DNA of 64,000 bases, taken from positions 62,001 to 126,000 of the forward strand of contig JABXII010000009.1 in assembly GCA_013373175.1 (NCBI GenBank), given 5' to 3'. A model generated the notes under the pieces. That model saw only the letters and a list, made by a program, of their open reading frames with translations, searched no databases and was not told the DNA's origin. This document shows positions 3,930 to 25,714 of the stretch, piece by piece (the stretch's first letter is position 1; the number at the start of each line of letters is the position of its first letter). The DNA comes from Campylobacteraceae bacterium. Its GTDB lineage: Bacteria; Campylobacterota; Campylobacteria; Campylobacterales; Arcobacteraceae. The position numbers and the translations under genes are program-made.

Positions 3930-3981
3930 AAAAGTCCTTAAAATAATTTATGAATATTGTATGTATATATTACTTAAACCC

Positions 3982-9289: not shown

Positions 9290-10500
9290 TGGCAGATTTT
9301 TTTCAAAATGGAGCAATAACTACTTTACAAAACTTAGGTAACAGAAGTTTAGAAAGTATAGAAAGTGAACTTGAAGAGTTTAGTAAAAGAAGAAGAATGG
9401 TATTGCTTTTGCCTGCACTTTATTCTGAGTTTGAAACTCCAGCGATGGCAAAGATTATTGAAGAGTTAAAAAGTGTCAAATATCTTTATAAAATCATATT
9501 AGGTTTAGATAGGGCAACTAAAGAACAGTTTGAAGAAGTAAAAGAGTTGATGTCTGTTTTACCTTGTAAAGTTGATGTTTTATGGAATGATGGACCAAAT
9601 ATTCAAAACCTTTATAAGAAACTAGAAGAAGAGGGATTTTTAGGACTACAAGACCCAGGAAAAGGAAGGAACGTTTGGACTATGATGGGCTATGGACTTA
9701 CAGACAAAGATGCCTACGCCTTTGCTTTACATGATTGTGATATTGTAAATTATAGTAAAGAAATACCCGCAAGACTTTTTTATCCTATTGTTCACCCAGC
9801 ATTAGACTTTGAATTTAACAAAGGTTTTTATTCAAGGGTAACAACAAAGCTTCATGGACGAGCTACTAGACTTCTTTTTACTCCTTTAATAAACTCCCTT
9901 GTAAAAGTCTCAGGAAGTAATAGATACTTAGAGTACATGGAGAGTTTTAGATATTCACTTTCAGGAGAGTTTTCATTTATAAGGTCACTTGGTAGAGGTA
10001 TTGGTATTTCTCCTACTTGGGGATTAGAGGTTTCAACTTTAAGTGAGGTTTACAAAAATACTTCAAATAAAAGAATCTGCCAAACAGAAATTATGGAAAC
10101 CTATGAACATAAACATCAAGAATTGGGAAGTTCACAAAGTGGTGGTGGAATATATAAAATGGCAAATGATATAGCAAAAACTTTATTTAGAGTTTTAGCT
10201 CAAGAAGGAGTAGTATTTTCAGAAGCTTCATTTAAAACACTTCTTGCTACATATTTTCAAGAATCAAGATTTGAAATTTCAAAATACAATGCCTTAAGTA
10301 AAATCAATGGACTTGAATACAATAGGGAAAAAGAGATTAAAGCAGTTGAAGCTTTTCAGGAGGCTATTAAACAAGCTTCTTTAGAGTTTTATGAAGATCC
10401 AATGGGGGTGCCATCTCTTCCACCGTGGATTACTGTTAGGTCTGTGTTACCAGACTTCTCTGATAAGTTTTATTTTGCTGTACAAGAAGATAATAAATAA
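9289..10500 (+). CDS. glucosyl-3-phosphoglycerate synthase-like glycosyltransferase
   Basis: 403 residues, soluble, with a GT-A fold. It starts MADFFQNGAITTLQNLG, a pattern I associate with archaeal and bacterial glucosyl-3-phosphoglycerate synthases (GT81 group). The metal-binding DxD equivalent is DCD in ALHDCDIVNY near residue 148, and PGKGRNVWTMMGYG near 120 resembles the donor/acceptor loop of that family. The expected reaction is NDP-glucose + 3-phosphoglycerate to glucosyl-3-phosphoglycerate. A mannosyl-transferring version is possible. The neighbours (phosphatase, GH13 phosphorylase, galU) support the glucosyl reading. It is coupled by TAATG overlaps on both sides. Confidence 0.8.
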   Translation: MADFFQNGAITTLQNLGNRSLESIESELEEFSKRRRMVLLLPALYSEFETPAMAKIIEELKSVKYLYKIILGLDRATKEQFEEVKELMSVLPCKVDVLWNDGPNIQNLYKKLEEEGFLGLQDPGKGRNVWTMMGYGLTDKDAYAFALHDCDIVNYSKEIPARLFYPIVHPALDFEFNKGFYSRVTTKLHGRATRLLFTPLINSLVKVSGSNRYLEYMESFRYSLSGEFSFIRSLGRGIGISPTWGLEVSTLSEVYKNTSNKRICQTEIMETYEHKHQELGSSQSGGGIYKMANDIAKTLFRVLAQEGVVFSEASFKTLLATYFQESRFEISKYNALSKINGLEYNREKEIKAVEAFQEAIKQASLEFYEDPMGVPSLPPWITVRSVLPDFSDKFYFAVQEDNK

Positions 10501-12224
10501 TGCATATATCAAAAGAAGAACATACTATTAATAAAAGGCTAAATAGACTTTATCCTCCTGAAGTTGCCCAAAAAGCAGTAAATAGTATTATAGATTTAAT
10601 ATTCAAATATAAATCAAGGGTTGATTCAAAAGAGTATAAACTTAGTCAAAAAGATGTCATCTTGATAACTTATGGAAATCAAGTTACAAGGGAGGGGGAA
10701 CCTTCACTTCAAGTTTTAAAGGAGTTTATGGATAAACATTTAAAAGGCATAATTAATTCAATACACATTTTACCTTTTTATCCCTACTCTTCTGATGATG
10801 GCTTTTCAGTTGTAAACTATAATACCGTTGATCCTCATATGGGATCATGGAGAGAGATTGAGCAAATAAGTAATGATTACAGACTTATGGTTGATGGAGT
10901 TATAAATCATGTATCACAGTTTTCTGATTGGTTTAAAGCTTATTTAGAAAATGATGAGTATTTTAAAGACTTTTTTATAGAAGTTGACCCAAGTGAAGAT
11001 TTAAGAAAAGTAGTAAGACCAAGGTCAACACCACTTTTAAGTGAATTTATTGATGTAAATGGAAGAGTAAAAAATATTTGGACTACTTTTAGTAGAGACC
11101 AAGTTGATTTAAACTATAGAAGTCATAGGGTTTTAAGAAATGTACTTGATTCACTTTTTTATTATATAGAAAAAGGTGCAAGAATAATAAGACTAGATGC
11201 CATCGCTTTTATTTGGAAAGAGATTGGAACTTCTTGCGTACACCTTCCACAAACTCATGAGTTAATACAACTAATAAGAGAAGTTTTACATGAAGTAGCA
11301 CCAGAAGTTATAATAATCACTGAAACAAATGTGCCCCATGATGAAAATGTCTCATATTTTGGAAGTGGAGATGATGAAGCACAGATGGTATATAACTTTG
11401 CCTTACCACCTTTATTAATCCACTCTATTTTAAATCAAGATACTAAAAAGCTTACTTCTTGGGCAAAAACTTTGACTTTGCCTAGTGATAAGGTTTGTTT
11501 TTTTAATTTCACAGCAAGTCATGATGGAATAGGGCTAAGGCCTGTAAATGGGATATTAAGTGAGGAAGAAATTGAAAACTTAGTCTCAACTGTAAAAGAG
11601 CATAAAGGCTTAGTTTCATATAGGATGGATGAAAATGCAGTTGAGAGTCCATATGAGTTAAACTGTTCTTATATAGATGCATTAACACATCCAGATGAAG
11701 ATAGCAATATAAGATTAAAAAGAATGTTAGTTGCACAAGCTACAGCTTTAGTTATGCCTGGAGTTCCAGGGATTTATTTCCATTCACTTGTAGGTTCAAG
11801 AAACTATCATGATGGGGTGAAACATAGTGGACAAAATAGAACAATAAATAGAGAAAAGCTAAATATTGATTGGCTTGAAAAAAAGCTTGCAAAACAAGGA
11901 AGTTCTGTAAAAACTATGTTTGATAGCTATAAAAGATTGATATCCATTAGAATTAGTGAAAAAGCCTTTGACCCATTTGGTTCTTTTAGATTTTTGGATT
12001 TAGGTTCAAAACTTTTTGCACTGGAGCAGACCTGTAAAGAGTGTGAGCAAAGAGTCTTAGCAATTCATAACTTTTCAAATGAAAGGGTTAAGTGTACTAT
12101 TCCTGAAGATATATCATTGCCTTTATATGATATACTTTCATCAAATTTTGCAGTCACAATTAAAGATAATAAAGATATATGTCTTGAGCCTTATCAAATA
12201 GTATGGCTTAAGGGAAATGTATAA
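10500..12224 (+). CDS. GH13_18 sugar phosphorylase, probably glucosylglycerate phosphorylase
   Basis: 574 residues of an alpha-amylase-fold phosphorylase related to sucrose phosphorylase. Conserved regions are LPFYPYSSDDGFSV near 95, DGVINH near 132, RLDAIAFIWK near 230 (catalytic nucleophile Asp), ITETNVPHDEN near 273 (acid/base Glu), and ASHDGIGLRP near 338 (stabilising Asp). In known enzymes of this clade the acceptor can be sucrose, sucrose 6-phosphate or glucosylglycerate. The operon contains glucosylglycerate synthesis genes and glycerate kinase and no sucrose genes, so glucosylglycerate + Pi to glucose-1-phosphate + glycerate is the best inference. The stop lies 15 bp before galU. Confidence 0.82.
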   Translation: MHISKEEHTINKRLNRLYPPEVAQKAVNSIIDLIFKYKSRVDSKEYKLSQKDVILITYGNQVTREGEPSLQVLKEFMDKHLKGIINSIHILPFYPYSSDDGFSVVNYNTVDPHMGSWREIEQISNDYRLMVDGVINHVSQFSDWFKAYLENDEYFKDFFIEVDPSEDLRKVVRPRSTPLLSEFIDVNGRVKNIWTTFSRDQVDLNYRSHRVLRNVLDSLFYYIEKGARIIRLDAIAFIWKEIGTSCVHLPQTHELIQLIREVLHEVAPEVIIITETNVPHDENVSYFGSGDDEAQMVYNFALPPLLIHSILNQDTKKLTSWAKTLTLPSDKVCFFNFTASHDGIGLRPVNGILSEEEIENLVSTVKEHKGLVSYRMDENAVESPYELNCSYIDALTHPDEDSNIRLKRMLVAQATALVMPGVPGIYFHSLVGSRNYHDGVKHSGQNRTINREKLNIDWLEKKLAKQGSSVKTMFDSYKRLISIRISEKAFDPFGSFRFLDLGSKLFALEQTCKECEQRVLAIHNFSNERVKCTIPEDISLPLYDILSSNFAVTIKDNKDICLEPYQIVWLKGNV

Positions 12225-13125: not shown

Positions 13126-14397
13126 ATGGTAAGTTTTGAGCAAAATTTTTATCCAAAGATTTCTAAAGTAGGAAAAGAGACTTTAAAAAAAAGTTTTGAA
13201 GCTTTAAAAAAAGAAAAAGAGTCTAAAAAAGTAGGCTATTATGAGCTTCCAAAAAATGGTTTAAAAACTATAAAAGAGGTCAAAACTTACCAAGAAGAGA
13301 ATCCTTATTTTAAAAAGGATTCTATAAAAAATATCATAGTAGTTGGAATTGGTGGTTCTAGTTTAGGGACAAAAGCTGTTTATGAGTTTTTGAAATATAA
13401 AACTAAAAGCAAAAGAAAACTACACTTTCTAGAAAATGTTGACCCAATAATTATTGGAGAAACTCTACAAAAAATCAATAAAGAAGACACTCTGTTTTTA
13501 ATCATCTCAAAATCTGGAACTACTATTGAGACAACATCTATTTTCAAGTATATTATTGAGAAGTACAACTTTGATTTATCACTAAAAAAAGATGCAAATA
13601 GATTTGCTTTTATTACAGATAAGAACTCTTCTTTATCTAAACTTGCAAAAGAGTATTCAATAAAACAGTTTAATATTCCTTCAAATGTTGGTGGAAGATT
13701 CTCTGTTCTATCTGCTGTAGGGATAGTTCCTTTAGCTTTAATGGGAATTGATGTAAAAGAGCTTTTAAATGGAGCAAAAGGTTTAATTGATTCTTTCTTT
13801 GAATTTAAAGAGAAAAAAATACTAAAAAAAGCCTATTTTTATTCAAAACTTGCAAAAAAATATCCTATTAATGTACTATTTTCTTATTCATCTTTATTTA
13901 CATATTTTAATCAATGGTATGTGCAACTTTGGGGTGAATCTTTAGGAAAGCATGATATGTTAGGAAATAGTGTAGGGCTAACACCTGTACATCTTGTAGG
14001 TTCAGTTGACCAACACTCTTTTTTACAACTTATTTTACAAGGACCAAAAGATAAAACAGTAACAGTTATTAAAGTAGATGACTTTAAAAAAAGAGCAAAG
14101 ATACCAGATATAAAACTAAAATACTTAGAAAAAACAGACTACATAAATAATCACTCTTTTAATGAACTATTAAATGAAGAGTGCAATGCAACTTATGAGA
14201 CAATCTTAGAAAATGATATTCCTGTGGATATGATAGTTTTAGATAGAATAACAGCTCAAAATATAGGAATACTTATAGCTTATTATGAACTTCTAACTTC
14301 AAGTGTTGGACAAATGCTTATGATAAATACCTATAACCAACCAGGTGTAGAGTTTGGAAAACAAAAATTAGTTCAAAAGTTTGAAGAGGAAGCTTAG
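13126..14397 (+). CDS. pgi: glucose-6-phosphate isomerase
   Basis: About 423 residues from the ATG at 13126, which has AAAGG upstream; a TTG at 13108 in frame is less likely. It interconverts glucose-6-phosphate and fructose-6-phosphate, here needed gluconeogenically to supply hexose phosphate. Motifs are VVGIGGSSLGTKAV near 72, SKSGTTIETTS near 130, GGRFSVLSAVG near 188, GESLGKHD near 270 and DQHSFLQL near 295. Shorter than the E. coli enzyme (549), as in other compact bacterial forms. It ends the sugar operon and overlaps by 4 bp the end of the convergent transporter gene. The ribosome site lies in a possible hairpin (13089-13118). Confidence 0.95.
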   Translation: MVSFEQNFYPKISKVGKETLKKSFEALKKEKESKKVGYYELPKNGLKTIKEVKTYQEENPYFKKDSIKNIIVVGIGGSSLGTKAVYEFLKYKTKSKRKLHFLENVDPIIIGETLQKINKEDTLFLIISKSGTTIETTSIFKYIIEKYNFDLSLKKDANRFAFITDKNSSLSKLAKEYSIKQFNIPSNVGGRFSVLSAVGIVPLALMGIDVKELLNGAKGLIDSFFEFKEKKILKKAYFYSKLAKKYPINVLFSYSSLFTYFNQWYVQLWGESLGKHDMLGNSVGLTPVHLVGSVDQHSFLQLILQGPKDKTVTVIKVDDFKKRAKIPDIKLKYLEKTDYINNHSFNELLNEECNATYETILENDIPVDMIVLDRITAQNIGILIAYYELLTSSVGQMLMINTYNQPGVEFGKQKLVQKFEEEA

Positions 14398-15314
14398 ATT
14401 TTCTTTTCTTTATGAAGAATATATTGAAGTAATACAGTTACTAAACAAGAGATTATAATAAAGAACCAAACTTTAAAACCAAGATTAACATCTTTTAAAA
14501 CAGAAACTAAAATAGCAACTACTGCAGGGTTGATATATGTATAAGACATTATAATTTTAGGGTTTAAAACTATTGTTGCTTTTTGGTAAAGGTACAGAGT
14601 AAATAGTGTTGTCATAACTATTAAGTAAGCAATATTTATGGCAAACTCTCCTTTTACTAAGTGCCAGTTTAAAGGTATATCAAAAGCAAGTAAAATAATA
14701 GCCATCCAAAATGAACCACCAAGTAAAATAGAAAATACCATAACAATAGGTTTTTCATCTTTTTGTAAAATCTTTAAGAATATTGAATAAAAAGCCATTA
14801 AAAACATACTTCCAAAAAATACTAGGTCTCCATTGTTTAAAGAAAAAGATAGAAGTAAATCTAAACTACCTTTGAAAATAACTCCACAAGTACTAATAAC
14901 AGCTAAAAAGAAAATAGCATATTGCCTTAGGCTAATTTTATCTTTAAAGAAAAAGATACTAAGCAAAGCTGTTAATAAAGGCATAAGCGTGTACAAAGTA
15001 CCTGTATTTAAAGCTGTGGTTGTTTCTAAAGCAACAAGCTGTAAAACAAAGAAGCCTGCATAAAAAAAGCTTAATATAGCTCCTTTACCTAAACTTGGTA
15101 TTATCATAGCTCTATTTTCTTTGCTTATTAAAACAAAAGGAGCCAAGATGATAAAAGATATTATAAATCTAAGTAAAATAAGTGAAAAAGGGTCAATAAG
15201 ACCTGCAAGATTTTCCACTGCTATAAAAGAACCACCAATTAAAATAGTGGCTAAAAGTATATAGAAGTGACCTTGTAAAATTGAATTATTCAACTTCAAT
15301 AGCTTTTTGTACAC
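14394..15314 (-). CDS. EamA/DMT-family transporter
   Basis: 306 residues with about ten hydrophobic helices arranged as two EamA repeats. The first contains GGSFIAVENLAGLIDPFSLILLRF-type positions (near 25-50) and the second ends with the loop ILNPKIIMSYTYINP and a C-terminal KKI. Drug/metabolite exporters of this fold move amino acids, nucleosides or small metabolites, and the substrate cannot be read from sequence. The likely GTG start at 15314 overlaps the 3' end of hemD by 29 bp, so it is probably co-transcribed with hemD. Alternative TTG starts just downstream (15299, 15293) would remove the overlap or nearly so. Confidence 0.88.
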   Translation of the reverse strand: MYKKLLKLNNSILQGHFYILLATILIGGSFIAVENLAGLIDPFSLILLRFIISFIILAPFVLISKENRAMIIPSLGKGAILSFFYAGFFVLQLVALETTTALNTGTLYTLMPLLTALLSIFFFKDKISLRQYAIFFLAVISTCGVIFKGSLDLLLSFSLNNGDLVFFGSMFLMAFYSIFLKILQKDEKPIVMVFSILLGGSFWMAIILLAFDIPLNWHLVKGEFAINIAYLIVMTTLFTLYLYQKATIVLNPKIIMSYTYINPAVVAILVSVLKDVNLGFKVWFFIIISCLVTVLLQYILHKEKKI

Positions 15315-16188
15315 AAGCCTCTAATGATGTGTCATCTGCAATAAGTGGTTTTATATCTTTTGGGAAATGTTTTGCAGTTGTTTGACCAATAGAAATAGCA
15401 TAAAAACTACTATCCCATTCAAAGTTTTTGAAAAAGTATTCAATAGTTGAAGGTGAAGAAAAAATTATCTTTGAACCTTTAGGAATAGTTACTTTCTTGT
15501 CTATTTTTTTATAATTATTTTCATAAATAGTCTCTTCATCACAGTTAATACCTTTTTCTCTTAAGATATCAACTAGGTTTGAAATAGTTTTTTCTCCCCT
15601 TAGGTATAAAACTTTTTTGTCTTTTAAATCTTCGGCAATCTCTTCGGCAAACATATCACCATGTTTTTCTTTTCCAATAAACTCTAATCTACCATTTAAA
15701 TTTCTAATAAGTTTTGCACTTTGTGGTGAAATTACATATGAAGGAATCTTTTTCCATGATTTGTTAAATGAGTTTATTGATTCAATTGCATTTTTAGAAG
15801 TAAAAATTAAAGCATCATACTTTTCTAAATCTATATCTTTTTTAATAAATTTGATTTCAAATAATGGAATATTTTTAGCCCACTTTACTTTTTTGTTGCT
15901 AAGTACAAAAATGTTTTTTCTACTATTTTTAATATCTTCAGATATGGAATTATAGGCTCTTTTTATTCTAGACATGATTGAATTCTTTCCGTTTACTATG
16001 ATAGCTTTATCAGGTAAAACATCAAATTGAATGTGCTTCTTTGATAAATAAAATGTGATTTTTGTAAATTCTCTTTGTGTGTATTGGTTGCAGTATTTAT
16101 GGTCAGGTTTGATTATATTTGTTTTAGGGTCATATTCATAATATATTAAGTCTAATGAGTCAATTAGCTTTTTAATTTTCATAATCAA
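15286..16188 (-). CDS. hemD: uroporphyrinogen-III synthase, N-terminally extended
   Basis: 300 residues. The C-terminal 205 residues are HemD-like, the cyclase that closes hydroxymethylbilane into uroporphyrinogen III for haem and sirohaem: ALIFTSKNAIESI near 125, VISPQSAKLIRN near 155, VLYLRGEKTISNL near 195, FSSPSTIEYFFKNF near 245 and SIGQTTAKHF near 270. The first 95 residues (MKIKKLIDSLDLIYYEYDP onward) are not part of a normal HemD of about 210-250 residues and I do not recognise them. Translation might start later, for example at the ATG of MSRIKRAYN, giving about 230 residues. The gene is followed by an overlapping EamA transporter. Confidence 0.85.
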   Translation of the reverse strand: MIMKIKKLIDSLDLIYYEYDPKTNIIKPDHKYCNQYTQREFTKITFYLSKKHIQFDVLPDKAIIVNGKNSIMSRIKRAYNSISEDIKNSRKNIFVLSNKKVKWAKNIPLFEIKFIKKDIDLEKYDALIFTSKNAIESINSFNKSWKKIPSYVISPQSAKLIRNLNGRLEFIGKEKHGDMFAEEIAEDLKDKKVLYLRGEKTISNLVDILREKGINCDEETIYENNYKKIDKKVTIPKGSKIIFSSPSTIEYFFKNFEWDSSFYAISIGQTTAKHFPKDIKPLIADDTSLEACVQKAIEVE

Positions 16189-16317
16189 TTTTACTCCTAC
16201 ACACTAAATGTAATATATGTTTTTTCAGTTTAAGATACTCTTAAACAGTTTATATTTAGGTTAGTTTAGCACTTAAGAAGTAGAAAAAATGATAAAAATT
16301 TAATAAAAAAGAAATAA

Positions 16318-17268
16318 TTATTTAAAATTGTAATCAAAATTTTGAAAAGATTTATCTACTGAATCTTTAATACTATTACTTGAAATACCTTTTGTAATAG
16401 AAGTGTAAGATTTTATAGTTCTATTTCTATATATAAAACCTATAGTAATACTATTTTCAGCAATAAAAATTCCTCTTGCATCTTTCGTTTGCAAAAATGA
16501 ATCAATCTTTATTTTATAGTTTCCATTCTTTTTAAATATAAACCCTTCTTTTGTTAGAAAAGATTTTATTTTTGATGAAATTAGTGGGTAAGAGCCTTCA
16601 TTTTCAATATAAAAACTTGTTTTATTTTTAAATTCCTCTTGTTTTATTTTTGATTCTTTCAATATTTTATAAAAGGTTTCCTCTTTATATGAAGAGTCAA
16701 GAGTTTTTAGAATTTGAACTTTATTTATATATTTTGTTAAGTTTTTGTTTGCTTTTTTGTAACTAAGATATTTTGAGTAAGGATCTTTATTTTTTAAAGA
16801 ACTCTTTTTTATATAGTAGTTACTTATAAGCTGTTTTATCTGTGTTTTTAGTGTTTCAATTAAGTTTGACTTTTTTATTTCTACTTCCACAAAGACATTT
16901 TTATAGTTATTATAAATATTCTTAACTTTATAATCTTGAAAAATTAATTCTTGTGTTGAACTATTAATATTTTCAATATACTCTTTTGAAATATATTCTC
17001 TGTATTTGAAGGTAGATTTTTTTTCAAGTGTAGAGTTACTTTTTATTGATAAAGATAGTTTAGATGAGATAGATATTAGTGCTGATTTTATAGCTTTATC
17101 TAAATTTTCACCTTCTGCTACTCCATAAAGGTACAATGAATTATTTGCAGAAGGTTTAACATACCAAGAAGGAAGGTTATTATTTGTTTTTAACTCTATA
17201 TTTTCTTTAGAAGAACAAGCAATAAAAAGAAATGATGCAAATATAATAAATAAAAAGTTTTTTTTCAT
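16318..17268 (-). CDS. LPP20-family lipoprotein, long form
   Basis: 316 residues. The signal peptide ends in lipobox FIAC with Cys about residue 18, so it is a lipoprotein. Residues about 30-140 match the LPP20 pattern: LPSWYVKP, then YLYGVAEGENLDKAIKSAL, then a long run of amphipathic strands. The rest is lysine-rich and predicted soluble. LPP20 proteins include the Helicobacter antigen and the flagellar FlgP of Campylobacter/Vibrio. It is the last of three contiguous lipoprotein genes (1 bp spacing to the one upstream). The long C-terminal extension is unusual for LPP20 and has no family I recognise. Confidence 0.8.
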   Translation of the reverse strand: MKKNFLFIIFASFLFIACSSKENIELKTNNNLPSWYVKPSANNSLYLYGVAEGENLDKAIKSALISISSKLSLSIKSNSTLEKKSTFKYREYISKEYIENINSSTQELIFQDYKVKNIYNNYKNVFVEVEIKKSNLIETLKTQIKQLISNYYIKKSSLKNKDPYSKYLSYKKANKNLTKYINKVQILKTLDSSYKEETFYKILKESKIKQEEFKNKTSFYIENEGSYPLISSKIKSFLTKEGFIFKKNGNYKIKIDSFLQTKDARGIFIAENSITIGFIYRNRTIKSYTSITKGISSNSIKDSVDKSFQNFDYNFK

Positions 17269-18264
17269 CTAATTTTGCACTTGCTCTTTAACTATTTTAT
17301 TGTTTGTGATTTGTTCTTTAATTCTTAAAATAGCTTTGTCAATAGCTTCATTTGGTTCAAGAACTAAATCATCTGCTTGCTCATATAATTGTTTGGCTAA
17401 GGAGTATTCTCCTTGGGCTTCTTTTACAAGTCCTAAATTATAAGCAGCAACAAAACATTTGTCTTTTGTACTTGTAAGTAAGTTACTTAAGAGTTCTTCT
17501 GCTTTATCTAATCTTCCATTTTTAATGTATTGCAGGGAATATTCAAGTAATTTTTCTTGTTCATCAGTATAATCTATTTCTGGACTATCTAGTAATTCAA
17601 TACTTACATATCTTTTGTTTGGCGAAATCTTTGAGATAAATCTTTGAACAATTGTATCTGATAACTTATCTAGAACATATCCTTTTGTAGGAATATTATT
17701 AAGTCTATCAACACAGTTTGAGTAAGTTCTATCTTGCGAAATTGAATCAGCATAAATAATATCTCCAAATTGTACATCTGTAAGTTTTATATTTACACTT
17801 AAGTTATAGTTTGTTCTTGTACAAGAAACATAATATGTTCTACTTCTTTTACACTCTTTATCTATACATTTACTTCTTAAGGTTCTGTAATAGTTTCTAT
17901 TCATACTTGAATCAGCAACTGTTCCTGAAATAATCCCTTGAACTCCAATTAGTTTACCAACTTTTACAGCAGTTTTTTCATCTACTAATCCAGAATATTG
18001 CAGTTTTTGTTCATCAATGATTTTATCAATTTCTTCTCTATTCATAACAGTAAAATATTGAGAGCCTAAAACGGTTTTTTTAGATAATTGGGTTTCAAGT
18101 TTACTTGCAAAACCAATTGAATCATTCTTGAATCTAAGTACTGCAATCTTTTTAACATCTGCTGCTCTTTGGATATTTGCAGGTTCAATCATCTTCACGT
18201 TTACTTTTTGTGCACAACCTATAAAAAAAGTACTGATAAAAATAAGTATAAATATATTTTTCAT
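17269..18264 (-). CDS. CsgG/HfaB-like lipoprotein with C-terminal TPR
   Basis: 331 residues. The lipobox is FIGC (Cys about 17). The segment KKIAVLRFKNDSIGFASKLETQLSK through FTVMNREEIDKIIDEQKLQYSGLVDEKTAVKVGKLIGVQGIISG is the CsgG-type fold; CsgG itself forms the curli export pore, and related proteins include HfaB, LpoB and FlgT/FlgO-like factors. Residues about 230-320 contain one or two TPR helices (LLEYSLQYIKNGRLDKAEELL, YNLGLVKEAQGEYSLAKQLYEQ). Four to five cysteines around 130-150 (SKCIDKECKRS, YVSCTR) could form disulfides. It lies between two LPP20 lipoproteins, so it is probably part of an outer-membrane complex. Confidence 0.82.
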   Translation of the reverse strand: MKNIFILIFISTFFIGCAQKVNVKMIEPANIQRAADVKKIAVLRFKNDSIGFASKLETQLSKKTVLGSQYFTVMNREEIDKIIDEQKLQYSGLVDEKTAVKVGKLIGVQGIISGTVADSSMNRNYYRTLRSKCIDKECKRSRTYYVSCTRTNYNLSVNIKLTDVQFGDIIYADSISQDRTYSNCVDRLNNIPTKGYVLDKLSDTIVQRFISKISPNKRYVSIELLDSPEIDYTDEQEKLLEYSLQYIKNGRLDKAEELLSNLLTSTKDKCFVAAYNLGLVKEAQGEYSLAKQLYEQADDLVLEPNEAIDKAILRIKEQITNNKIVKEQVQN

Positions 18265-18265
18265 T

Positions 18266-18826
18266 TTATTGAATATTATTTAAAGCATCTTCTGAGTTTT
18301 TTATTTGAATCTCATTGTCTACTGCTTTTTTAAAACTATTCGCTACATAACTATTTACACTTTCTTTATCAATTGCTACTAATACAAAAATAGAATTGTC
18401 TTTTTCACTTTGCCAATAGCTTATTTGTTTAGAATCTGAAAGTGTCATATTCGAAGTTTGTTTAGCAACAGTTGTTACAACTTTTTCAACTTCTTCTTGC
18501 TCTTTTAGTCCTGCTGATCTCATATATGAATCTGCATTTGTTTGTAAATTAGCTTTTATTTTATTTACAAGATTGGCTTTTGCATTTAAAACTGCTTCAT
18601 TTCTAGTAAAATTATGACCTAGCTTTGAAAAAGGTGCTGAACCAACTGCTACAAATCTGTCTTTTTCTTCATATGAACCACAAACCCAAGCAGGAGCTTT
18701 TTCTCCTTGAATAGTACATTCAACTTCTAGTTTCTTAGGAGTATAAGCCTCTTTTTTTGAAGAGCAAGCTGTGAAACTAAGTATTGCTAATATTGCAAGT
18801 GAATTTAAAAATATTTTTTTATTCAT
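18266..18826 (-). CDS. LPP20-family lipoprotein, short form
   Basis: 186 residues. The signal peptide has lipobox FTAC (Cys about 21). The LPP20 domain follows: PAWVCGSYEEKDRFVAVGSAPFSKLGHNFTRNEAVLNAKANLVNK with a C-terminal VLVAIDKESVNSYV. It is first in the three-lipoprotein operon, with 1 bp between it and the CsgG-like gene. The layout (LPP20, CsgG-like, LPP20) recalls the flagellar FlgO/FlgP/FlgT outer-membrane set of vibrios, but no flagellar gene is next to it here, so the role is inferred only as an outer-membrane assembly factor. Confidence 0.85.
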   Translation of the reverse strand: MNKKIFLNSLAILAILSFTACSSKKEAYTPKKLEVECTIQGEKAPAWVCGSYEEKDRFVAVGSAPFSKLGHNFTRNEAVLNAKANLVNKIKANLQTNADSYMRSAGLKEQEEVEKVVTTVAKQTSNMTLSDSKQISYWQSEKDNSIFVLVAIDKESVNSYVANSFKKAVDNEIQIKNSEDALNNIQ

Positions 18827-18906
18827 AATATATCTTTCTTTTTTATTTTTTTTATTTTATCAAAATTTTGTGAAGATATAGTGAAATGACTTTATATAAC
18901 TATTAT

Positions 18907-21219
18907 TTAATTTTCAATTTCAAGCTCTTCTTTTAAATCATTTTCATCATGAAACCTTTTTTTATCTACTGTTAAAACAATCTTTTTGGCAATACTATCT
19001 GTTTCAATTGCAATTTCATTTGTTTTATTTGAAATAGCTGCATTTTGTTGGGTTTGCTGGTCTAAAGTATTTATTGCATCATTAATCTGCTCAATTCCAA
19101 TATTTTGTTCTTTACTTGCAGTTTCAACACTAGAAATAAGTGACAATGTTCTTTCAATATTTTCATTTAACCCACTATATCCATCTATCATTTTTGAAGC
19201 AATTTGTTTCCCTTCGTCTGCTTTTTGTGTTGCATTTTCTACTATTATTTTTATTTCATTTGCAGCTGTTGCACTTCTACTTGCAAGATTTCTTACTTCT
19301 TGTGCAACCACTGCAAAACCTTTTCCTGCTTCACCGGCAGTTGCTGCTTCAACTGCCGCATTTAATGAAAGAATATTTGTTTGAAATGCGATTTGATCAA
19401 TAATTCCTATAGCATTAGTAATCTCAGTAACTTGCTCATTTATTTCACTCATGGCAAGAGTAGTTTTATTAGCTAAGTTTTCTCCTTCTTTTACAGAAGA
19501 AGTTAACTCTTTTGCATTTAATGACATTTGAATAATATTCTCTGAACTATTAGAAATATTACTTCTTATTTCATCAATTGCAGCAGCTGTTTCTTCTAAA
19601 GCAACTGCAGATTGGTTAGAGTTAGTATTTAAAATTGATACATTTTCTATTAAAATATTGCTACTTTTATCTAATGTCATTCCATTGTGTTTATTTTCAA
19701 GCAAAGTTTCTGTTATAGAATCTCTTACAGAGTTTATTCCATTTGCAAGTCTTAGTAAATGCTCTTTTATTCCTTTTGTATCAACTTTATCTAGATAATT
19801 ATAGTTTGTGTATTCATCTAATACATGTAAGATATTATCGATATTAAAGCTTAGATTTTTCGCCATATTATTTAAAAGCTTTGTTAATTCTTTTAATTCT
19901 GGGTTTTGTGTTGTTAAGGTTACCCTTTGATTTAAGTCTCCTTTTTCAAACTCTTTTAACACCGTAATTGTTTCATCTATTACTTTTCTATCTTCTTGCA
20001 TTTTTTGGTTAACACTTTTAATATTTTCATTAACAACTTTTGACATCTTTCCAATTTCATCATTGCTTTTTTCACTTAATAATTCTATTTCTGAATTTTC
20101 TCTATTTAAATATTTAAAAAACTGTAATAATCCATTTTGGAAAGCATTTAGTGGAGCAATAATTCCTTTATTGATTACTATATAAATAATAAAAGAGATA
20201 AGCAGTAGTAAAACGAAAGATATCATTAGAATTTTGTTTCTTAATAAAGTAGGAGTTTCTAAAACTTCAGCTTCATCTATTTCAGAAACTATTGCCCATG
20301 TTATATTTTTTGAAATTTTTATTGTAGTATAAGATACTAACTTTTTATCTATAAGCTCAGTTTTTGAAAGATTAGAAAAAGCATTTTTAACAGCTTTGGT
20401 TTTTTTATTATTTGAATTAGGATTTGAAAAAGATGCTTTTACACTATGTGTTTTTGGATTAAGAAAACTGTCATTTCTCATAAGGTAATCAGCTCCAACT
20501 AAATAATCTTCTTGTGAAGAACCATAGCCCTGTCTTGATTGCATAATTTTATTAATATCTTCAATTTTTATTTGTACAACTAAAACCGATAGCATTGTTC
20601 CATCTTCATATCCATCTTCATATATTGGAATTCCTAAAAACATTGTAGGTTTGTTGTCGCTTGGAGCATAAGTTTTCATATCAACAAAGGTTGTACTTTT
20701 ATTTTCAATAGTATTTTCCCAAACTAAAGCTAAGGCACTATCTTTTAACTTACCACTTTTAAGATTTTCACCAAAGTCAGATTTCTTTGTAACACTATAA
20801 TATACATGTCCTTCTTTTGCATCTATTAAATATATGTCTTCATAATTATATCCTTTGATATAGTTTTTAAAAAATCTTTCAGATGAGGAAATTGTATCAA
20901 GAAACATAGAATCATCAATAGGAAAGTTGTCATCTTTTTTAATATCTATTTGATAATAAAGACTCTTTAACTCATATGCTAATTGATCGACATTTTTACT
21001 TTTAGATAAAACTTTAATATCATTAGAAGCTCTTACAAAAAACTTTCGAATCTGTTGAAGTTTATTATCTCTTGAAAAAGTCAAGCTATCATGACTTTTT
21101 TGCATTAACGCATCTTTTGCTTCATTTACAGAAATAAAACCAAGTATTGTTGACATTATTAACAAACCAACAACAGAAATCATTATGATTTTTGTTTTAA
21201 TATTAATACTATTGAACAT
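18907..21219 (-). CDS. methyl-accepting chemotaxis protein with Cache sensor
   Basis: 770 residues. Transmembrane helices at about 12-30 and 328-350 flank a double-Cache-like periplasmic sensor, with DIYLIDAKEGHVYYSVTKKSDFGENL and DYLMRNDSF typical of Cache folds. A HAMP-like region follows, then a long methyl-accepting domain whose tip reads IIDQIAFQTNILSLNAAVEAATAGEAGKGFAVVAQEVRNLASRSA. It would control CheA and flagellar rotation. The ligand is unknown. The short C-terminal tail (ENDLKEELEIEN) has no CheR-docking pentapeptide. It is a single-gene unit, the last clearly chromosomal gene before the accessory patch. Confidence 0.95.
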   Translation of the reverse strand: MFNSINIKTKIIMISVVGLLIMSTILGFISVNEAKDALMQKSHDSLTFSRDNKLQQIRKFFVRASNDIKVLSKSKNVDQLAYELKSLYYQIDIKKDDNFPIDDSMFLDTISSSERFFKNYIKGYNYEDIYLIDAKEGHVYYSVTKKSDFGENLKSGKLKDSALALVWENTIENKSTTFVDMKTYAPSDNKPTMFLGIPIYEDGYEDGTMLSVLVVQIKIEDINKIMQSRQGYGSSQEDYLVGADYLMRNDSFLNPKTHSVKASFSNPNSNNKKTKAVKNAFSNLSKTELIDKKLVSYTTIKISKNITWAIVSEIDEAEVLETPTLLRNKILMISFVLLLLISFIIYIVINKGIIAPLNAFQNGLLQFFKYLNRENSEIELLSEKSNDEIGKMSKVVNENIKSVNQKMQEDRKVIDETITVLKEFEKGDLNQRVTLTTQNPELKELTKLLNNMAKNLSFNIDNILHVLDEYTNYNYLDKVDTKGIKEHLLRLANGINSVRDSITETLLENKHNGMTLDKSSNILIENVSILNTNSNQSAVALEETAAAIDEIRSNISNSSENIIQMSLNAKELTSSVKEGENLANKTTLAMSEINEQVTEITNAIGIIDQIAFQTNILSLNAAVEAATAGEAGKGFAVVAQEVRNLASRSATAANEIKIIVENATQKADEGKQIASKMIDGYSGLNENIERTLSLISSVETASKEQNIGIEQINDAINTLDQQTQQNAAISNKTNEIAIETDSIAKKIVLTVDKKRFHDENDLKEELEIEN

Positions 21220-21501
21220 TACTTATCCCTTGTAGACATTTTTGATTATCATAACTAAGAAGTCTGGCTTAAAACTTGCAGAATTTAAAATTGTTTTTAA
21301 GTAGTTTGGATGGGTTAATTATTATTGTATTCTATATAGAGACTTATAAAAATATCAAAAAAAGTAACTATAAAATAACTTTTTATAAAATTATATTTAG
21401 TAAAAAAAAGATATACTTTTAAAAATTTAATAATATAGAAAAAGATTTTATAATTGTATTGATATTGAAGTAAATATATAAGTCCTCAAAGTAGTGACCT
21501 T

Positions 21502-21756
21502 GTGAAAAAAGCGAATAAAAATATTTGGCAAACGATAAGTTATAATGATTGTAAGTTCTATTTAAAAAAGAAAGTGATTAAACCTAAGTTTAGTATGGTT
21601 TTTTCAAATTTATATTTTGAAAATGAAATAGAATTATGCAAAGAATTTGTTCATGCAGATAACAAAAGAATTTGGTTTGATTGTTTTTTACTAGCAAATG
21701 ATGCAAATTTGGGTGAAATAAAGATTACAGAGGATAGGCATCATCCTAAAGGATAG
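21502..21756 (+). CDS. orphan 84-residue ORF, unknown
   Basis: A GTG-initiated ORF of 84 residues, basic at the N-terminus (MKKANKNIWQTI) and ending EDRHHPKG. There is no recognised domain, no signal peptide and no good Shine-Dalgarno (CAAAGTAGTGACC lies upstream). It stands alone in a 690-bp stretch between the chemoreceptor and the helicase. It may be a true small island gene or a remnant of a longer broken gene: a second frame downstream (about 21757-21800) continues to look weakly coding. The call is low confidence. Apart from this ORF, 21220-21911 contains only AT-rich DNA. Confidence 0.35.
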   Translation: MKKANKNIWQTISYNDCKFYLKKKVIKPKFSMVFSNLYFENEIELCKEFVHADNKRIWFDCFLLANDANLGEIKITEDRHHPKG

Positions 21757-21911
21757 AGGTTTAAGTTTGGAAATAGTGGCACATATTATGGAAAATAGAA
21801 ATAGATAATATCAATAGTTATAAAATTAGTAATGAACGATTAATCACAAAAAAAAGAACAGCTAATATTCAGTAGAATATAATAAAATTTACTAGAACAA
21901 TAAGGTTAATA

Positions 21912-24026
21912 ATGGAAAAAACAATTGCAACAGAACTTTCACCTGAAGGTATAGATGATAATATATTTAATTATTTAGAAGAAGAAGAAATTAATTTGGA
22001 ACTTGATGATGCTATCCTTTACTTTGGTTTTCCAGTATTTAAAGATTATGAACAAAACTCAGTAAAACCTAAATTTGTTTTGTTATCTCCTAATCATGGT
22101 ATAGTATTAATTTATACATCAGATAAACATACAATTAAAGAAGATGATGAAATATTAGAACAGCTATATAGTTTTGTAGAATCATCATTTAGAAAAAGTA
22201 AAATATTACGAAAAAACAAGAGAGAGTTAGCTATACCTATAAATAGTTATTTATATGCTTCTAATATAGATGAAAATAAAGATGAATATGATTTAGAAAA
22301 TGATATTTTGACATCATTGTCAGCAATATTTCAAACAATTGTAGAAATCCATACTGATGAGATATTAAGTGAAGAAATAATTAAAGAAGCTAGATCAATT
22401 ATTGAAGGAGCAAAAGTTGTTGCAAGTACTAGTAAAAGAATCAAAGTATCTGAAGACCCTCATAATAAATCTAATATATTAATTGCATTAGAAAAAGAAA
22501 TTACAAATTTTGATGAAGAACAAAGGAAAATTGCAATAAATCTTATTAATGGTCCACAAAGAATAAGGGGTTTAGCAGGTTCTGGTAAAACAATAGTTTT
22601 AGCTATGAAAGTTGCAAATATACATCTTCAGCATCCTAAAAAAAGAATATTATTTACTTTTTATACAAAAAGTTTATATGGATTAATCAAAGAGTTAATT
22701 ACAAAATTTTATTGGCATTATGCAGGGACAGAACCCAATTGGGATTTAATTGATATATTACATTCTTGGGGTGGGCGAAGAATAGATGGTGTTGCCTTTA
22801 ATGTTAGTATCGATAATAACTTTCATATATTATCTTTTAAAGAAGCTCAAACGATTAATCCTATGGATCCATTTAAAACTGTTTGTCAAAGACTTCTTAA
22901 AAATCGTATTGAAGCGAAGTATGATTATATTTTGATCGATGAAGCTCAGGATTTACCTAATGAATTTTTTCAAATATGTTTTAAACTTGCATATGGAGAA
23001 AGTGGTGAACAAAAAAATATTGTATGGGCATATGATGAACTTCAATCAATATTTCAGGTTTATCAACGTACACCACAAGAATTATTTGGACAAAATTCTA
23101 GTGGAATAGCAAATATTGATTTAAATAAATTTAGATTAAAATTACATCATACTCAAAAAAATGATTTAGTTTTATTTAAATGTTATAGAAATCCCCTTGA
23201 AGTTTTAATCACTGCTCATGCATTAGGTTTTGGTCTTTATTCAGATAATCATGTACAAAGATTAGAGAATGCAGAGCATTGGAGAGATGTAGGATATACA
23301 GTTCAAGAAGATCAAAATTTTAATATAGGTAGTACTGTTAAAATAAAGAGAGAACATAAAAATAGTCCTTTATCAATATATCAATATCAGAGTCCTTCCG
23401 ATCTTATTGAAACTTTTGCTGCTGAAAATGCAATTGAAGAATGTGAGTGGATATGTAATAAAATAAAGGGATCAATAGAAGAAGGTCTTAATCCTCATGA
23501 TATTTTAGTAATTGGTTTAGATGATAAATATGCAAATAAATATTTTGCCAAAATATCATCATTATTACTTGAATATGGAATAAGGTCAAATAACCTTTTA
23601 GCTTCAAGAGTGGCAGCACCTCCCTTTTGTTTGAAGGATATGGTTACTTTATCAACTGTTCATAGGGCAAAAGGAAATGAAGCAGCATTAGTTTTTGCAG
23701 CAGGAATTGATGCTTTATATCATCAAAGAAATACTATTAAAGGTAGAAACAAACTTTTTACTGCTTTTACAAGAACAAAAGCCTGGTTAAAAATTAGTGG
23801 AATTAAAAAAAATTCAATACCATTTTTTAAAGAAATTGAAATGAGTCTTACAAACTCACCTGAACTCAAATTCACAGTACAAGAAATATCATCTATTCAA
23901 AGAGATTTTGATTCTAGTCCAGATGAAATTGCAAAACTATATTCAGTTGTAGACGAGTTTAAAGAAAAAGGATATACTCAAGAGCAATTAAAGATTCTTT
24001 TTAATGAGACAATTGATGGACAATAG
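21912..24026 (+). CDS. SF1 (UvrD/Rep-like) helicase, candidate defence protein
   Basis: 704 residues. Helicase motifs are GLAGSGKTIVL near 220 (Walker A), YILIDEAQDLPNEF near 340 (Walker B, DEAQD as in UvrD-type enzymes), VWAYDELQSIF near 370 (motif III), FKCYRNPLEV near 420 (motif IV), STVHRAKGNEA near 580 (motif V) and LFTAFTRTKAWL near 615 (motif VI). The first 200 residues are not helicase: they include AILYFGFPVFKDYEQNS and VLLSPNHGIVLIYTSDK, reminiscent of a NERD or restriction-nuclease-like beta sheet, but I cannot identify catalytic residues. It overlaps the DUF2290-like gene by 23 bp and sits beside a broken integrase, a typical defence-island position. Confidence 0.9.
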   Translation: MEKTIATELSPEGIDDNIFNYLEEEEINLELDDAILYFGFPVFKDYEQNSVKPKFVLLSPNHGIVLIYTSDKHTIKEDDEILEQLYSFVESSFRKSKILRKNKRELAIPINSYLYASNIDENKDEYDLENDILTSLSAIFQTIVEIHTDEILSEEIIKEARSIIEGAKVVASTSKRIKVSEDPHNKSNILIALEKEITNFDEEQRKIAINLINGPQRIRGLAGSGKTIVLAMKVANIHLQHPKKRILFTFYTKSLYGLIKELITKFYWHYAGTEPNWDLIDILHSWGGRRIDGVAFNVSIDNNFHILSFKEAQTINPMDPFKTVCQRLLKNRIEAKYDYILIDEAQDLPNEFFQICFKLAYGESGEQKNIVWAYDELQSIFQVYQRTPQELFGQNSSGIANIDLNKFRLKLHHTQKNDLVLFKCYRNPLEVLITAHALGFGLYSDNHVQRLENAEHWRDVGYTVQEDQNFNIGSTVKIKREHKNSPLSIYQYQSPSDLIETFAAENAIEECEWICNKIKGSIEEGLNPHDILVIGLDDKYANKYFAKISSLLLEYGIRSNNLLASRVAAPPFCLKDMVTLSTVHRAKGNEAALVFAAGIDALYHQRNTIKGRNKLFTAFTRTKAWLKISGIKKNSIPFFKEIEMSLTNSPELKFTVQEISSIQRDFDSSPDEIAKLYSVVDEFKEKGYTQEQLKILFNETIDGQ

Positions 24027-24702
24027 AGATTTTAATAAAAATATAAAAAAATGTATTACTCTTTTAGAAAATAATAATTTTTTATTTCAAGCAGGTTGTA
24101 TTACTTCTTTAGAAGCAAGTGATGTATTTAAAAAGGCTTCAAGAAGTTCTTTATCGTACAGAGAACTCTATGATATTGGAGCATCAAGACAAGATTTTAA
24201 TATTATGCTTAAAGATCAGTCTTTTTTTCAATTTACCAAAGAATTAAATGATAATCTAAGATTAGTATATTATCCTAATCCATATAATTTTTCAGAATAT
24301 CAGGAAACATTACGTGAATATGAAGACTTATTAATTAATGGAGATTTATCAAATGAAGAATATGAACAATTTTTATCAGAAGAATTTTTTACAAGTGATA
24401 TACCTTTAATTAGATATGATTATGCACCAAATCAATATTGTGAGAACTATCATCCTGCTGCACATTTACATATTGGTTTTGAAGCTGAAAATAGATGGCC
24501 AGTAAAAAGAGTTTTATCACCATATGCTTTCCTTCTAAAAATATTAATGATCTACTATTCTAAATTATGGAAAGAATGGGGAAATAATGGTGATGCTGCT
24601 AATAGCTTAGATGAACTCTATAGAGAAGAATTAATTAGTTGTAAGCATTTAGATACAGAATTATTTAGTAGTATAGAAGAAAAAAGACTTTATTTTCATT
24701 AA
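24004..24702 (+). CDS. DUF2290-like protein, helicase partner
   Basis: 232 residues (or 228 if started at the in-frame ATG at 24016, MDNRDFNKNI). Soluble, acidic. The segment YDYAPNQYCENYHPAAHLHIGFE around residues 140-165 carries a His-rich HPAAHLHIG pattern that I associate with the uncharacterised DUF2290 family. The clustered histidines and acidic residues could bind metal, which would suggest a nuclease or hydrolase, but this is inference. The C-terminus (SPYAFLLKILMIYYSKLW) is helical. The start lies inside the helicase gene in another frame, so the pair is translated together and likely acts as a two-component system. Confidence 0.75.
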   Translation: MRQLMDNRDFNKNIKKCITLLENNNFLFQAGCITSLEASDVFKKASRSSLSYRELYDIGASRQDFNIMLKDQSFFQFTKELNDNLRLVYYPNPYNFSEYQETLREYEDLLINGDLSNEEYEQFLSEEFFTSDIPLIRYDYAPNQYCENYHPAAHLHIGFEAENRWPVKRVLSPYAFLLKILMIYYSKLWKEWGNNGDAANSLDELYREELISCKHLDTELFSSIEEKRLYFH

Positions 24703-24716
24703 TTTAGTATTAATTT

Positions 24717-25176
24717 ATTTAACCAATCAGCCTACCATTGTATTAGTTCTTTTTTCTCTTCAAAATACTTCATTTTGAAGCTCTATTATATGCCGCTTTA
24801 ATTTTATTTTTTTCTTCATGGGCTAAATATGATTCAATAATATCACTATTAAATCTATATTCTTTCATGTGTTATTGTTGAGAATGTACTTCTAAATCCA
24901 TGAGTAGTATGTCTATTTTGATATCCTAGTTTTTTTAATGCATGTCCTAGTGTTGCATCACTTAATTTTCTTGCTTCATTAAACTCCAAAGCTCATAGAT
25001 TTTCTTTTATTTTCAAATTTAAAATCAAATCTAAAAAATTTAGTTCCATTAGGTTTAATAATTAAATATAAACTTTGTCCATCACTTAATTTATATTGTT
25101 TTTCTTTAGGTTTAGCAGCTTTAATTTCTTTATCTGTTAGAGGTTTTACAATTTTTGGCATTTTTACGGTATCCAT
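24717..25176 (-). pseudogene. degenerate P4-type tyrosine integrase
   Basis: The 5' part (25176 to 24979) reads 65 residues of an intact integrase N-terminal domain: PLTDKEIKAAKPKEKQYKLSDGQSLYLII, then KPNGTKFFRFDF, as in DUF4102/P4 integrases, then a stop after KSMSFGV. Below it, in shifted frames, come remnants of the C-terminal catalytic domain: ARKLSDATLGHALKKLGYQ, RHTTHGFRSTFSTITHER (the RxxH region of the active site), ESYLAHEEKNKIKAAYNRAS (with the nucleophile tyrosine) and a final WADWLN-like tail broken by stops. About 200 central residues are deleted. The gene is dead. Its position beside the 3' end of ssrA marks a classic island insertion site. Confidence 0.88.
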
Positions 25177-25230
25177 TTTTGAACTTTTGCTATTACCGTA
25201 ATAAATCTTAGAAATTATTAAAAACTAAAA

Positions 25231-25255
25231 GAATGAGATAGAATGATTTAGAATG
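25231..25255. repeat. three 10-bp-phased AGAATG direct repeats
   Basis: GAATG occurs at 25231, 25241 and 25251, exactly ten bases apart, each preceded by A (AGAATG with four variable bases between). The repeats lie between the integrase start and the ssrA 3' end and immediately left of a perfect palindrome. One helical turn of spacing is what arm-type integrase binding sites or iterons show. Function is inferred from position only. Confidence 0.5.
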
Positions 25256-25257
25256 TT

Positions 25258-25280
25258 AAAGTTCGATTATATCGAACTTT
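25258..25280. repeat. perfect 10-bp inverted repeat downstream of ssrA
   Basis: AAAGTTCGAT, TAT, ATCGAACTTT. Arms of ten bases match exactly. On the plus strand it is followed by TT, extending a run of five T, so it could terminate rightward transcription. For ssrA, which runs leftward, the following sequence is AACATT, a poor U-tract, so its role as the ssrA terminator is uncertain. It could equally be part of an integrase attachment region. Confidence 0.5.
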
Positions 25281-25313
25281 TTAGAACAAATAATAAAGTA
25301 TAATTATTAATAT

Positions 25314-25714
25314 TGGTGGAGATGTGGAGAATCGAACTCCAGTCTTAAAACAGCTACTACCAGCGTCTACATGCTTAGAAGGGTTGAAAAATTTCACTTC
25401 ACAACAGCTCAACCCGCAAAAACAATTGCGAAGCTAAGATTTAAAAGTGTCTCAAATTAGCCAAATCAACTCTAAGATGATAATCTATCTTGGGTGAACC
25501 CACGAAATCTACCTAGATAGAATCAGTAGTGTGAGCCTCCGAGGTCTCAAGCCCTAAGGCGAGTCCTATAAGTTTGTTAAAACTTACGCAGCTTTTGCGT
25601 AAGCTGGAGCGTAATCAGTATTGTTTGCGTCTAAAAAAAATGAACCGCGTAACGGCATGTTCAGGCCGACATGCAACTGATCCTCACTGCTCTAATCGAT
25701 ACCAAGTCATCCCC
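25314..25714 (-). ncRNA. ssrA: transfer-messenger RNA (tmRNA)
   Basis: 401 nt on the minus strand. The 5' end GGGGATG (25714 leftwards) pairs with CATCTCC before the ACCA end at 25314, forming the 7-bp tRNA-Ala-like acceptor stem. The T arm reads GGAGTTCGATTCTCC. The tag frame (25628-25584) encodes ANNTDYAPAYAKAA followed by TAA, ending in the usual AA-type degron recognised by ClpXP. tmRNA with SmpB rescues stalled ribosomes and tags the nascent chain. The gene is intact through CCA, so the island insertion at its 3' side kept or restored the end. It is divergent from bioA. Confidence 0.97.

What the first reader, a model, noticed from the sequence alone, without database searches (positions are those of the whole stretch)
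21912..24702. SF1 helicase + DUF2290-like gene pair as a candidate undescribed defence system
Seen: two genes overlapping by 23 bp, a UvrD-type helicase with a divergent 200-residue N-terminus and a 232-residue partner with a HPAAHLHIG histidine cluster. They sit in a short accessory patch beside a dead integrase and the tmRNA. Known: tightly coupled helicase + small unknown pairs at integrase-linked tRNA/tmRNA sites are typical of antiviral modules. Inferred: the pair forms an anti-phage or anti-plasmid system, with the helicase N-terminus (NERD-like) or the partner supplying nuclease activity. I know of no named system with this exact pair.
Basis: partly seen in the sequence, partly recalled or inferred. 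Interest (0 to 1): 0.7.

Follow-up and report, generated by a model that had tools for sequence, protein, structure and literature searches.

The report
Known helicase-DUF2290 defence gene pair
Two overlapping bacterial genes, a DNA helicase and a small partner protein, form a new copy of an already described anti-phage system; comparison with relatives suggests that the helicase's nuclease-like front end is dead and that the partner may be a toxin-like effector.

Summary
The pair is real: helicase 21912-24026, partner 24004-24702. It is not undescribed. The helicase matches PADLOC 'Helicase' (E 3e-138) and the partner 'DUF2290' (5.7e-18): the Helicase+DUF2290 system that Rousset et al. 2022 reported to inhibit phage T7. 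It is accessory here: 1 of 16 genomes of the genus has it, and the tmRNA-linked slot holds other cargo in a sister genome. DUF2290 lies directly downstream in 89 of 100 loci; 7 of the 11 misses run into a contig end.

Two points go further. DUF2290 folds confidently (pLDDT 94), has no convincing PDB match, and shows weak colinear profile similarity to TumE, a translation-targeting toxin.

Likely mechanism: the helicase senses abnormal phage or plasmid replication and releases DUF2290 as a growth-arresting effector. Membership is near certain; mechanism is inferred.

The parts
21912..24026 (+). SF1 (UvrD-type) helicase gene, 704 aa
   Evidence: model pLDDT 91
21912..22445 (+). N-terminal domain (about residues 1-178) that aligns with the NERD nuclease domain of stand-alone relatives; catalytic positions are K54, Y68, S70 (boundaries approximate)
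22569..22592 (+). Walker A, GLAGSGKT (residues 220-227)
   Evidence: G225, K226 and T227 invariant in A5
22938..22952 (+). Walker B, DEAQD (residues 343-347)
   Evidence: D343, E344, Q346, D347 invariant in A5
24004..24702 (+). DUF2290 partner gene, 232 aa (alternative start 24016)
   Evidence: model pLDDT 94
24451..24477 (+). HPAAHLHIG cluster; H150 and H154 invariant in 77 DUF2290 proteins
24710..25176 (-). Integrase remnant: two pieces that match the two ends of a 408-aa integrase in a sister genome
25314..25714 (-). tmRNA gene, 3' end facing the pair
21318..25152 (.). Variable slot: this stretch is replaced by about 3.9 kb of other DNA in sister genome G402

Best explanation
The pair is a member of the described Helicase+DUF2290 anti-phage system (probability about 0.97). 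Proposed mechanism (about 0.5 as a whole): the SF1 helicase, with its motor and a NERD-derived but non-catalytic N-terminal domain, engages abnormal replication intermediates of phages or plasmids. It holds the co-translated DUF2290 protein and, on ATP-driven engagement, frees or activates it. DUF2290 is the effector: its conserved D71, R137, H150, H154 and R164 (with nearly invariant D139), on or next to strands of one predicted sheet, look like an active or nucleic-acid-binding site, and it stops growth, perhaps by blocking translation. Shown here: membership by sequence, co-occurrence, intact helicase motifs, loss of the NERD triad, accessory distribution. Reported by others for relatives: T7 inhibition; a helicase (PA1372) needed for the cost of a plasmid. 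Inferred: the complex, the gating and the effector activity.
For: PADLOC Helicase 3e-138 and DUF2290 5.7e-18. DUF2290 directly downstream in 89 of 100 loci, 87 of them at -50 to +43 bp. Phylum sample: the same 3 of 397 genomes (window's own included) carry both genes. T7 inhibition by the family (section 8 of PMC9122126). Loss of PA1372 removes the cost and SOS response linked to plasmid rep (passages of PMC4410645); PA1372/PA1371 are assigned to this system in PMC11637435. No D-E-K triad in 98 of 98 coupled helicases, so the N-terminus is not an obvious nuclease. Invariant polar residues in DUF2290. TumE-like profile signal.
Against: No experiment on this pair. Rousset et al. as read here give no mechanism. 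San Millan et al. interpret PA1372 otherwise (it raises rep expression; no role of its own) and saw no significant change in plasmid copy number. The TumE signal is weak without removing a helical insert: P 0.026 and 0.023, 0.075 with the 13-sequence alignment; an unrelated family (the helicase) scored 20.3 against 18.9 for TumE; reversed TumE scored 19.6. The window's DUF2290 itself has no TumE hit in Pfam.
Confidence: 0.5

Rival explanations
1. DUF2290 is a DNA nuclease of unfamiliar fold that the helicase directs or unleashes, as HamA/HamB in Hachiman or GajA/GajB in Gabija; invading or damaged DNA is cut.
For: Nuclease-helicase pairs are common in defence; Hachiman is described as effector nuclease plus sensor helicase (abstract in the search listing). 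Conserved D/H/R residues could bind metal. The NERD site is lost, so a nuclease in trans would replace it.
Against: No match of DUF2290 to a nuclease in Pfam, PDB sequences or PDB folds (a missing match is weak evidence).
Confidence: 0.3
2. The helicase is the active part and DUF2290 is a regulator or inhibitor that restrains it.
For: The two genes are coupled; helicase loss alone abolishes the plasmid phenotype of the relative PA1372.
Against: Six invariant residues, five of them polar, across 77 diverse DUF2290 proteins suggest catalysis or binding rather than a plain cap.
Confidence: 0.1
3. The helicase's NERD-like N-terminus cuts nucleic acid and DUF2290 is accessory.
For: The domain aligns with NERD of stand-alone relatives, 4 of 7 of which pass Pfam's NERD cut-off; two coupled members keep D-D-K.
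Against: Window has K54/Y68/S70; 0 of 98 coupled helicases have D-E-K.
Confidence: 0.03
4. A housekeeping DNA repair pair.
For: UvrD-type motor; best structural matches include UvrD.
Against: 1 of 16 genomes of the genus, 3 of 397 in the phylum sample; occurrence on plasmid and viral contigs; family inhibits T7.
Confidence: 0.04

Closest known systems
Helicase+DUF2290 (Rousset et al. 2022; PADLOC Helicase/DUF2290; NCBIfam STM2767/STM2766; PA1372/PA1371)
   Same: Same two families, same order, overlapping genes, mobile setting
   Different: Divergent: NCBIfam equivalog cut-offs are not reached (130.9 of 550 and 17.7 of 70 bits); the host branch is Campylobacterota by my inference; activity not tested
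Gabija (GajA/GajB)
   Same: UvrD-type helicase; GajB models hit at up to 7.8e-18
   Different: Partner is DUF2290, no GajA hit among the four ORFs scanned
Hachiman (HamA DUF1837 / HamB)
   Same: Helicase plus small partner; possible sensor-effector logic
   Different: SF1 UvrD-type helicase and DUF2290; no DUF1837 hit
TumE-TumA toxin-antitoxin (TumE = DUF6516, PF20126)
   Same: DUF2290 has colinear motifs L-x-D-x-S, R-Y-D, H-x-H-x-G and seven predicted strands with helices at both ends, as TumE is described
   Different: Larger (232 against about 130 aa), helical insert, coupled to a helicase instead of TumA; weak statistics
Stand-alone NERD-UvrD helicases
   Same: Same helicase core and N-terminal domain
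   Different: They keep D-E-K in 9 of 10 and lack DUF2290; core tree separates the groups at 100/99
Schlafen SLFN11/SLFN14 helicase domain
   Same: Foldseek's best hit for the whole helicase (7zep_A, E 7.1e-16); VIA-align Z 26.7, rmsd 3.4, 325 aligned
   Different: Match is mainly the SF1 motor (model 183-632); UvrD scores as high (4c2t_A Z 27.5, rmsd 3.1, 368 aligned); shared fold shows no function

Membership tests
Helicase+DUF2290 system | SF1 helicase of the PADLOC Helicase model | tested here: met
   PDLC03002, E 3e-138, residues 32-656
Helicase+DUF2290 system | DUF2290 partner | tested here: met
   PF10053 3.7e-15, over cut-off; PDLC02998 5.7e-18
Helicase+DUF2290 system | adjacent genes on one strand | tested here: met
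   23-bp overlap; 89 of 100 loci
Helicase+DUF2290 system | anti-phage activity | not testable with these tools
   Reported for other members against T7
Gabija | GajA ATPase-nuclease next to GajB | tested here: not met
   No GajA hit for the four ORFs scanned around the pair
Hachiman | HamA (DUF1837) next to the helicase | tested here: not met
   No DUF1837 hit for the partner; it is DUF2290
NERD nuclease | catalytic D...E-x-K | tested here: not met
   K54, Y68, S70; no Pfam NERD hit
TumE toxin | match to PF20126 | tested here: not met
   No hit for the window protein at E up to 5; 1 of 77 relatives at 0.032
TumE toxin | TumA antitoxin next door | tested here: not met
   Neighbour is a helicase
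TumE toxin | TumE core motifs in order (distant homology) | tested here: inconclusive
   P 0.026 unmodified, 0.0017 and 0.00039 with the helical insert left out; controls
TumE toxin | toxicity and block of translation | not testable with these tools
   Needs expression in a laboratory strain

The most novel reading that the evidence does not exclude
Helicase+DUF2290 is a helicase-gated toxin system: DUF2290 is a TumE-superfamily, translation-targeting effector held by an SF1 helicase whose own NERD nuclease domain has decayed into a non-catalytic sensor or docking module, so one lineage exchanged a built-in nuclease for a separate toxin.
Probability: 0.3. Interest if true: 0.7.

Novelty: new member of a known kind. 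Interest (0 to 1): 0.42.

Why it matters
The Helicase+DUF2290 family is widespread (bacterial and archaeal loci) and is listed in defence catalogues, and a relative is tied to plasmid cost, yet the passages read here offer no mechanism for the pair. Showing that the NERD site is lost in coupled helicases removes the obvious nuclease candidate and points to DUF2290. The TumE resemblance turns 'unknown function' into a specific prediction (toxicity and translation block, named residues) that one laboratory experiment can test.

Tried and rejected
Rejected: 'undescribed system'; nuclease in the helicase N-terminus; Gabija or Hachiman membership.

Led nowhere: the search for related loci with the single DUF2290 protein (25 stretches matched a pattern, none confirmed); tblastn of DUF2290 in phage records (no match); PDB sequences for DUF2290 (one hit, E 0.4); Foldseek of DUF2290 in PDB (225 matches at E up to 10, none at 0.001) and in BFVD (323 and none); VIA-align best Z 4.6, rmsd 3.3, 87 aligned, within the range of common arrangements; no exact repeat of 12 bp or more between the tmRNA end (25291-25420) and 14001-25285; base composition does not mark the island (GC 0.23-0.29, against 0.26-0.30 upstream and 0.32-0.34 downstream); promoter-like sites 21 against 31.4 expected and no terminator-like site.

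Of the 11 loci without DUF2290, 7 (L024, L049, L073, L106, L109, L113, L114) end within 250 bp of the helicase; 4 have more room (L051 860 bp; L068 with a short helicase frame; L080 with a split frame; L092). (b) The triad count used helicase frames over 600 aa; 98 of 99 coupled rows had letters at all three positions. Some rows are near-identical (for example L050 and L098), so they are not independent. Six frames without a detected DUF2290 (L024, L049, L051, L073, L106, L113) lack the triad too and were left out of both counts. (c) The 10 stand-alone helicases were partly chosen because their records say 'nuclease-related' or NERD, which favours intact NERD; seven (L119-L123, L125, L126) are called stand-alone from annotation tables only. 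L124, fetched for that set, proved coupled; L127 (helicase and NERD genes apart, an IS between) was dropped. The core tree (47 rows picked by me) makes the coupled/stand-alone split a single event. (d) A4 holds the window and 76 of the 80 size-selected DUF2290 proteins (L043, L098, L107, L108 left out); L015 (split frame) was also left out. (e) The tree used 60 of 64 loci L017-L080, the window and the Proteus record. (f) Leaving out residues 96-131 before the TumE comparison was my choice, guided by the helices of the model; varies it.

Full report
WHAT IS THERE. The partner may start at a second ATG, 24016, judging by where homologues begin, giving an 11-bp overlap. Pfam gives UvrD-helicase (2.3e-12), UvrD_C_2 (5.7e-11) and DUF2290 (3.7e-15). 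The tmRNA is at 25314-25714 on the minus strand, its 3' end facing the pair, with an integrase remnant between.

NAMED SYSTEM. PADLOC's 'Helicase' model (PDLC03002) covers residues 32-656 at E 3e-138 and 'DUF2290' (PDLC02998) matches the partner at 5.7e-18. NCBIfam names the families STM2767 and STM2766; both match below their cut-offs. A search for DUF2290 found 8 papers; I read passages of five. In Rousset et al. [quoted passage not shown] PMC11637435 (one passage) assigns P. aeruginosa PA1372/PA1371 to this system; I did not test that assignment. In PMC4410645 (12 passages) inactivation of PA1372 lowers plasmid rep expression 11.1-fold and restores host expression and fitness; its authors see the helicase as a gene without a clear role of its own that raises rep expression, and plasmid copy number did not change significantly. 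So 'no named system' is wrong, and 'defence' is right at family level.

CO-OCCURRENCE AND MOBILITY. Of 100 loci (80 genome, 19 viral-contig, the window), 89 have DUF2290 downstream on the same strand, 87 of them with a gap of -50 to +43 bp; 7 of the 11 misses run into a contig end within 250 bp. The loci are ranked by similarity to a coupled helicase and are not a random sample. In a phylum sample 3 of 397 genomes, the window's own included, carry DUF2290 and the same 3 carry the helicase; in the genus it is 1 of 16, the window's own. A tree of 62 helicases puts the window beside a Campylobacterales bin (100/99), then among Gammaproteobacteria and a Proteus record: compatible with transfer between phyla, not proof of it. 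Of the 11 coupled plasmid records fetched first, four show defence genes nearby: BREX, type I RM, SIR2 with an ATPase, an abortive infection protein; there is no random control for this.

THE SLOT. An 821-bp query over the tmRNA and the start of the next gene (an aminotransferase by my reading) matches nearly full length in 4 of 15 congeners; the other 11 match tmRNA and the gene apart or only tmRNA. I examined those four. In G402 the window matches at 93% up to 21317 and at 94% from 25153; the 3.8 kb between is replaced by about 3.9 kb with two ORFs without Pfam hit and a Fic protein (PADLOC SoFic 2.2e-29). In G401 a 408-aa integrase (Phage_integrase 8e-21) lies beside tmRNA, and the window retains its two ends. 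G399 and G391 match only at the tmRNA side and farther upstream. This is a tmRNA-linked cargo slot; I found no att-like exact repeat of 12 bp or more and no compositional mark.

THE HELICASE N-TERMINUS. Of seven stand-alone relatives scanned, four pass Pfam's NERD cut-off. At the positions of NERD's D...E-x-K the window has K54, Y68, S70. None of 98 DUF2290-coupled helicases has D-E-K (two, L087 and L102, have D-D-K, which a PD-(D/E)xK enzyme could tolerate), against 9 of 10 stand-alone ones. A tree of helicase cores (47 rows) separates coupled from stand-alone at 100/99, so the association counts as one evolutionary event, and the stand-alone set was partly picked by its nuclease annotation. 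For the window itself the triad is plainly absent. Walker A and B are present, with invariant residues. Structurally the motor resembles UvrD (4c2t_A, Z 27.5, rmsd 3.1, 368 aligned) and Schlafen 11 (7zep_A, Z 26.7, rmsd 3.4, 325 aligned).

THE PARTNER. An AlphaFold2 model from 77 sequences has mean pLDDT 94.1 with seven strands (27-30, 67-69, 74-79, 85-90, 136-140, 153-157, 165-167), helices at both ends, and a helical insert at 97-126. D71, R137, H150, H154, R164 and F176 are invariant in the 77. No PDB match reaches E 0.001; best VIA-align Z 4.6, rmsd 3.3, 87 aligned, which is uninformative. From recall I noticed that the order L-x-D-x-S, R-Y-D, H-x-H-x-G resembles TumE. A Pfam scan of the 77 members then listed TumE for one member at E 0.032, among 40 families that are mostly chance. 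TumE proteins were fetched and aligned. Unmodified, hhalign's best local match is R-Y-D...H-x-H-x-G, but weak: P 0.026, 0.075 with the 13-sequence DUF2290 alignment, 0.023 with 31 TumE proteins, where an unrelated family scored higher (20.3 against 18.9); 2 of 200 column shuffles reached 18.8. With the helical insert left out, both motif blocks align in register: P 0.0017 with 11 TumE proteins, 0.00039 with 31. Scores are then 25.2-30.5, against at most 20.6 in 200 shuffles, 19.8 among 16 unrelated families, 19.6 for reversed TumE, and 18.5 in 50 shuffles each maximised over 19 deletions; of the 19 deletions only those starting at 86 and 96 lift the real score to about 30. TumE is described as two helices on a seven-stranded antiparallel sheet without confident PDB match, and as a block of protein synthesis with an unproven RNase activity proposed (passages of PMC10584680). 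The link is suggestive, not shown.

MECHANISM. Best reading: the helicase is the sensor and DUF2290 the effector that it holds and releases or activates when phage or plasmid replication presents the wrong structure. T7 inhibition, the rep-linked plasmid cost and the gene coupling fit; gating and effector chemistry are inferred. The main rival is a DNA nuclease of unfamiliar fold with Hachiman-like logic.

NOVELTY. New member of a known kind. A search for papers with at least two of DUF2290, TumE, DUF6516 and 'NERD domain' gave two, neither containing DUF2290; a search for the system's names gave 8 (listing only apart from those read above). The library lacks most subscription papers. Interest 0.42, for the testable effector proposal rather than for the pair itself.

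Noticed in passing
L142 (G402) 1733-5067 and L140 (G401) 9255-11853: The same tmRNA slot in sister genomes carries a Fic protein (SoFic model of PADLOC), in G402 together with two ORFs of 372 and 191 aa without Pfam or PADLOC hit.
   Followed up: partly
L012 3890-10013: A Haloarcula plasmid has a stand-alone NERD helicase with intact D-E-K directly upstream of a DUF1837 gene and a second helicase, that is, beside a Hachiman-like pair (annotation).
   Followed up: no
L087 and L102, helicase N-terminus: Two DUF2290-coupled helicases keep D-D-K at the NERD positions; L087 also has a NERD hit below cut-off (E 0.0024). They could be intermediates of the loss.
   Followed up: partly
helicase model, residues 183-632: Foldseek's best solved match for the whole helicase is human Schlafen 11 (E 7.1e-16), and some relatives have sub-threshold hits to the Schlafen group 3 helicase family in Pfam.
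   Followed up: no
21502-21756 (+): An 84-aa ORF between the chemoreceptor-like gene and the helicase, without Pfam, PADLOC, NCBIfam or PHROG hit; possibly debris of earlier cargo.
   Followed up: no
L015 2950-3619: On an Acinetobacter pittii plasmid the DUF2290 gene is split into two overlapping frames while the helicase frame is whole.
   Followed up: no
window 25314-25345 against L140 about 12018-12050: The last bases of the tmRNA gene differ between the window and G401 although the surroundings are about 95% alike, as expected if integration replaces the gene's end.
   Followed up: no
records NZ_OL790811.1 and NZ_OL790812.1 (L004): Two Proteus mirabilis 'plasmid' records of about 4.1 Mb are probably chromosomes by size; the pair there is the closest in the plasmid collection (50.9% and 58.0% identity).
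   Followed up: no
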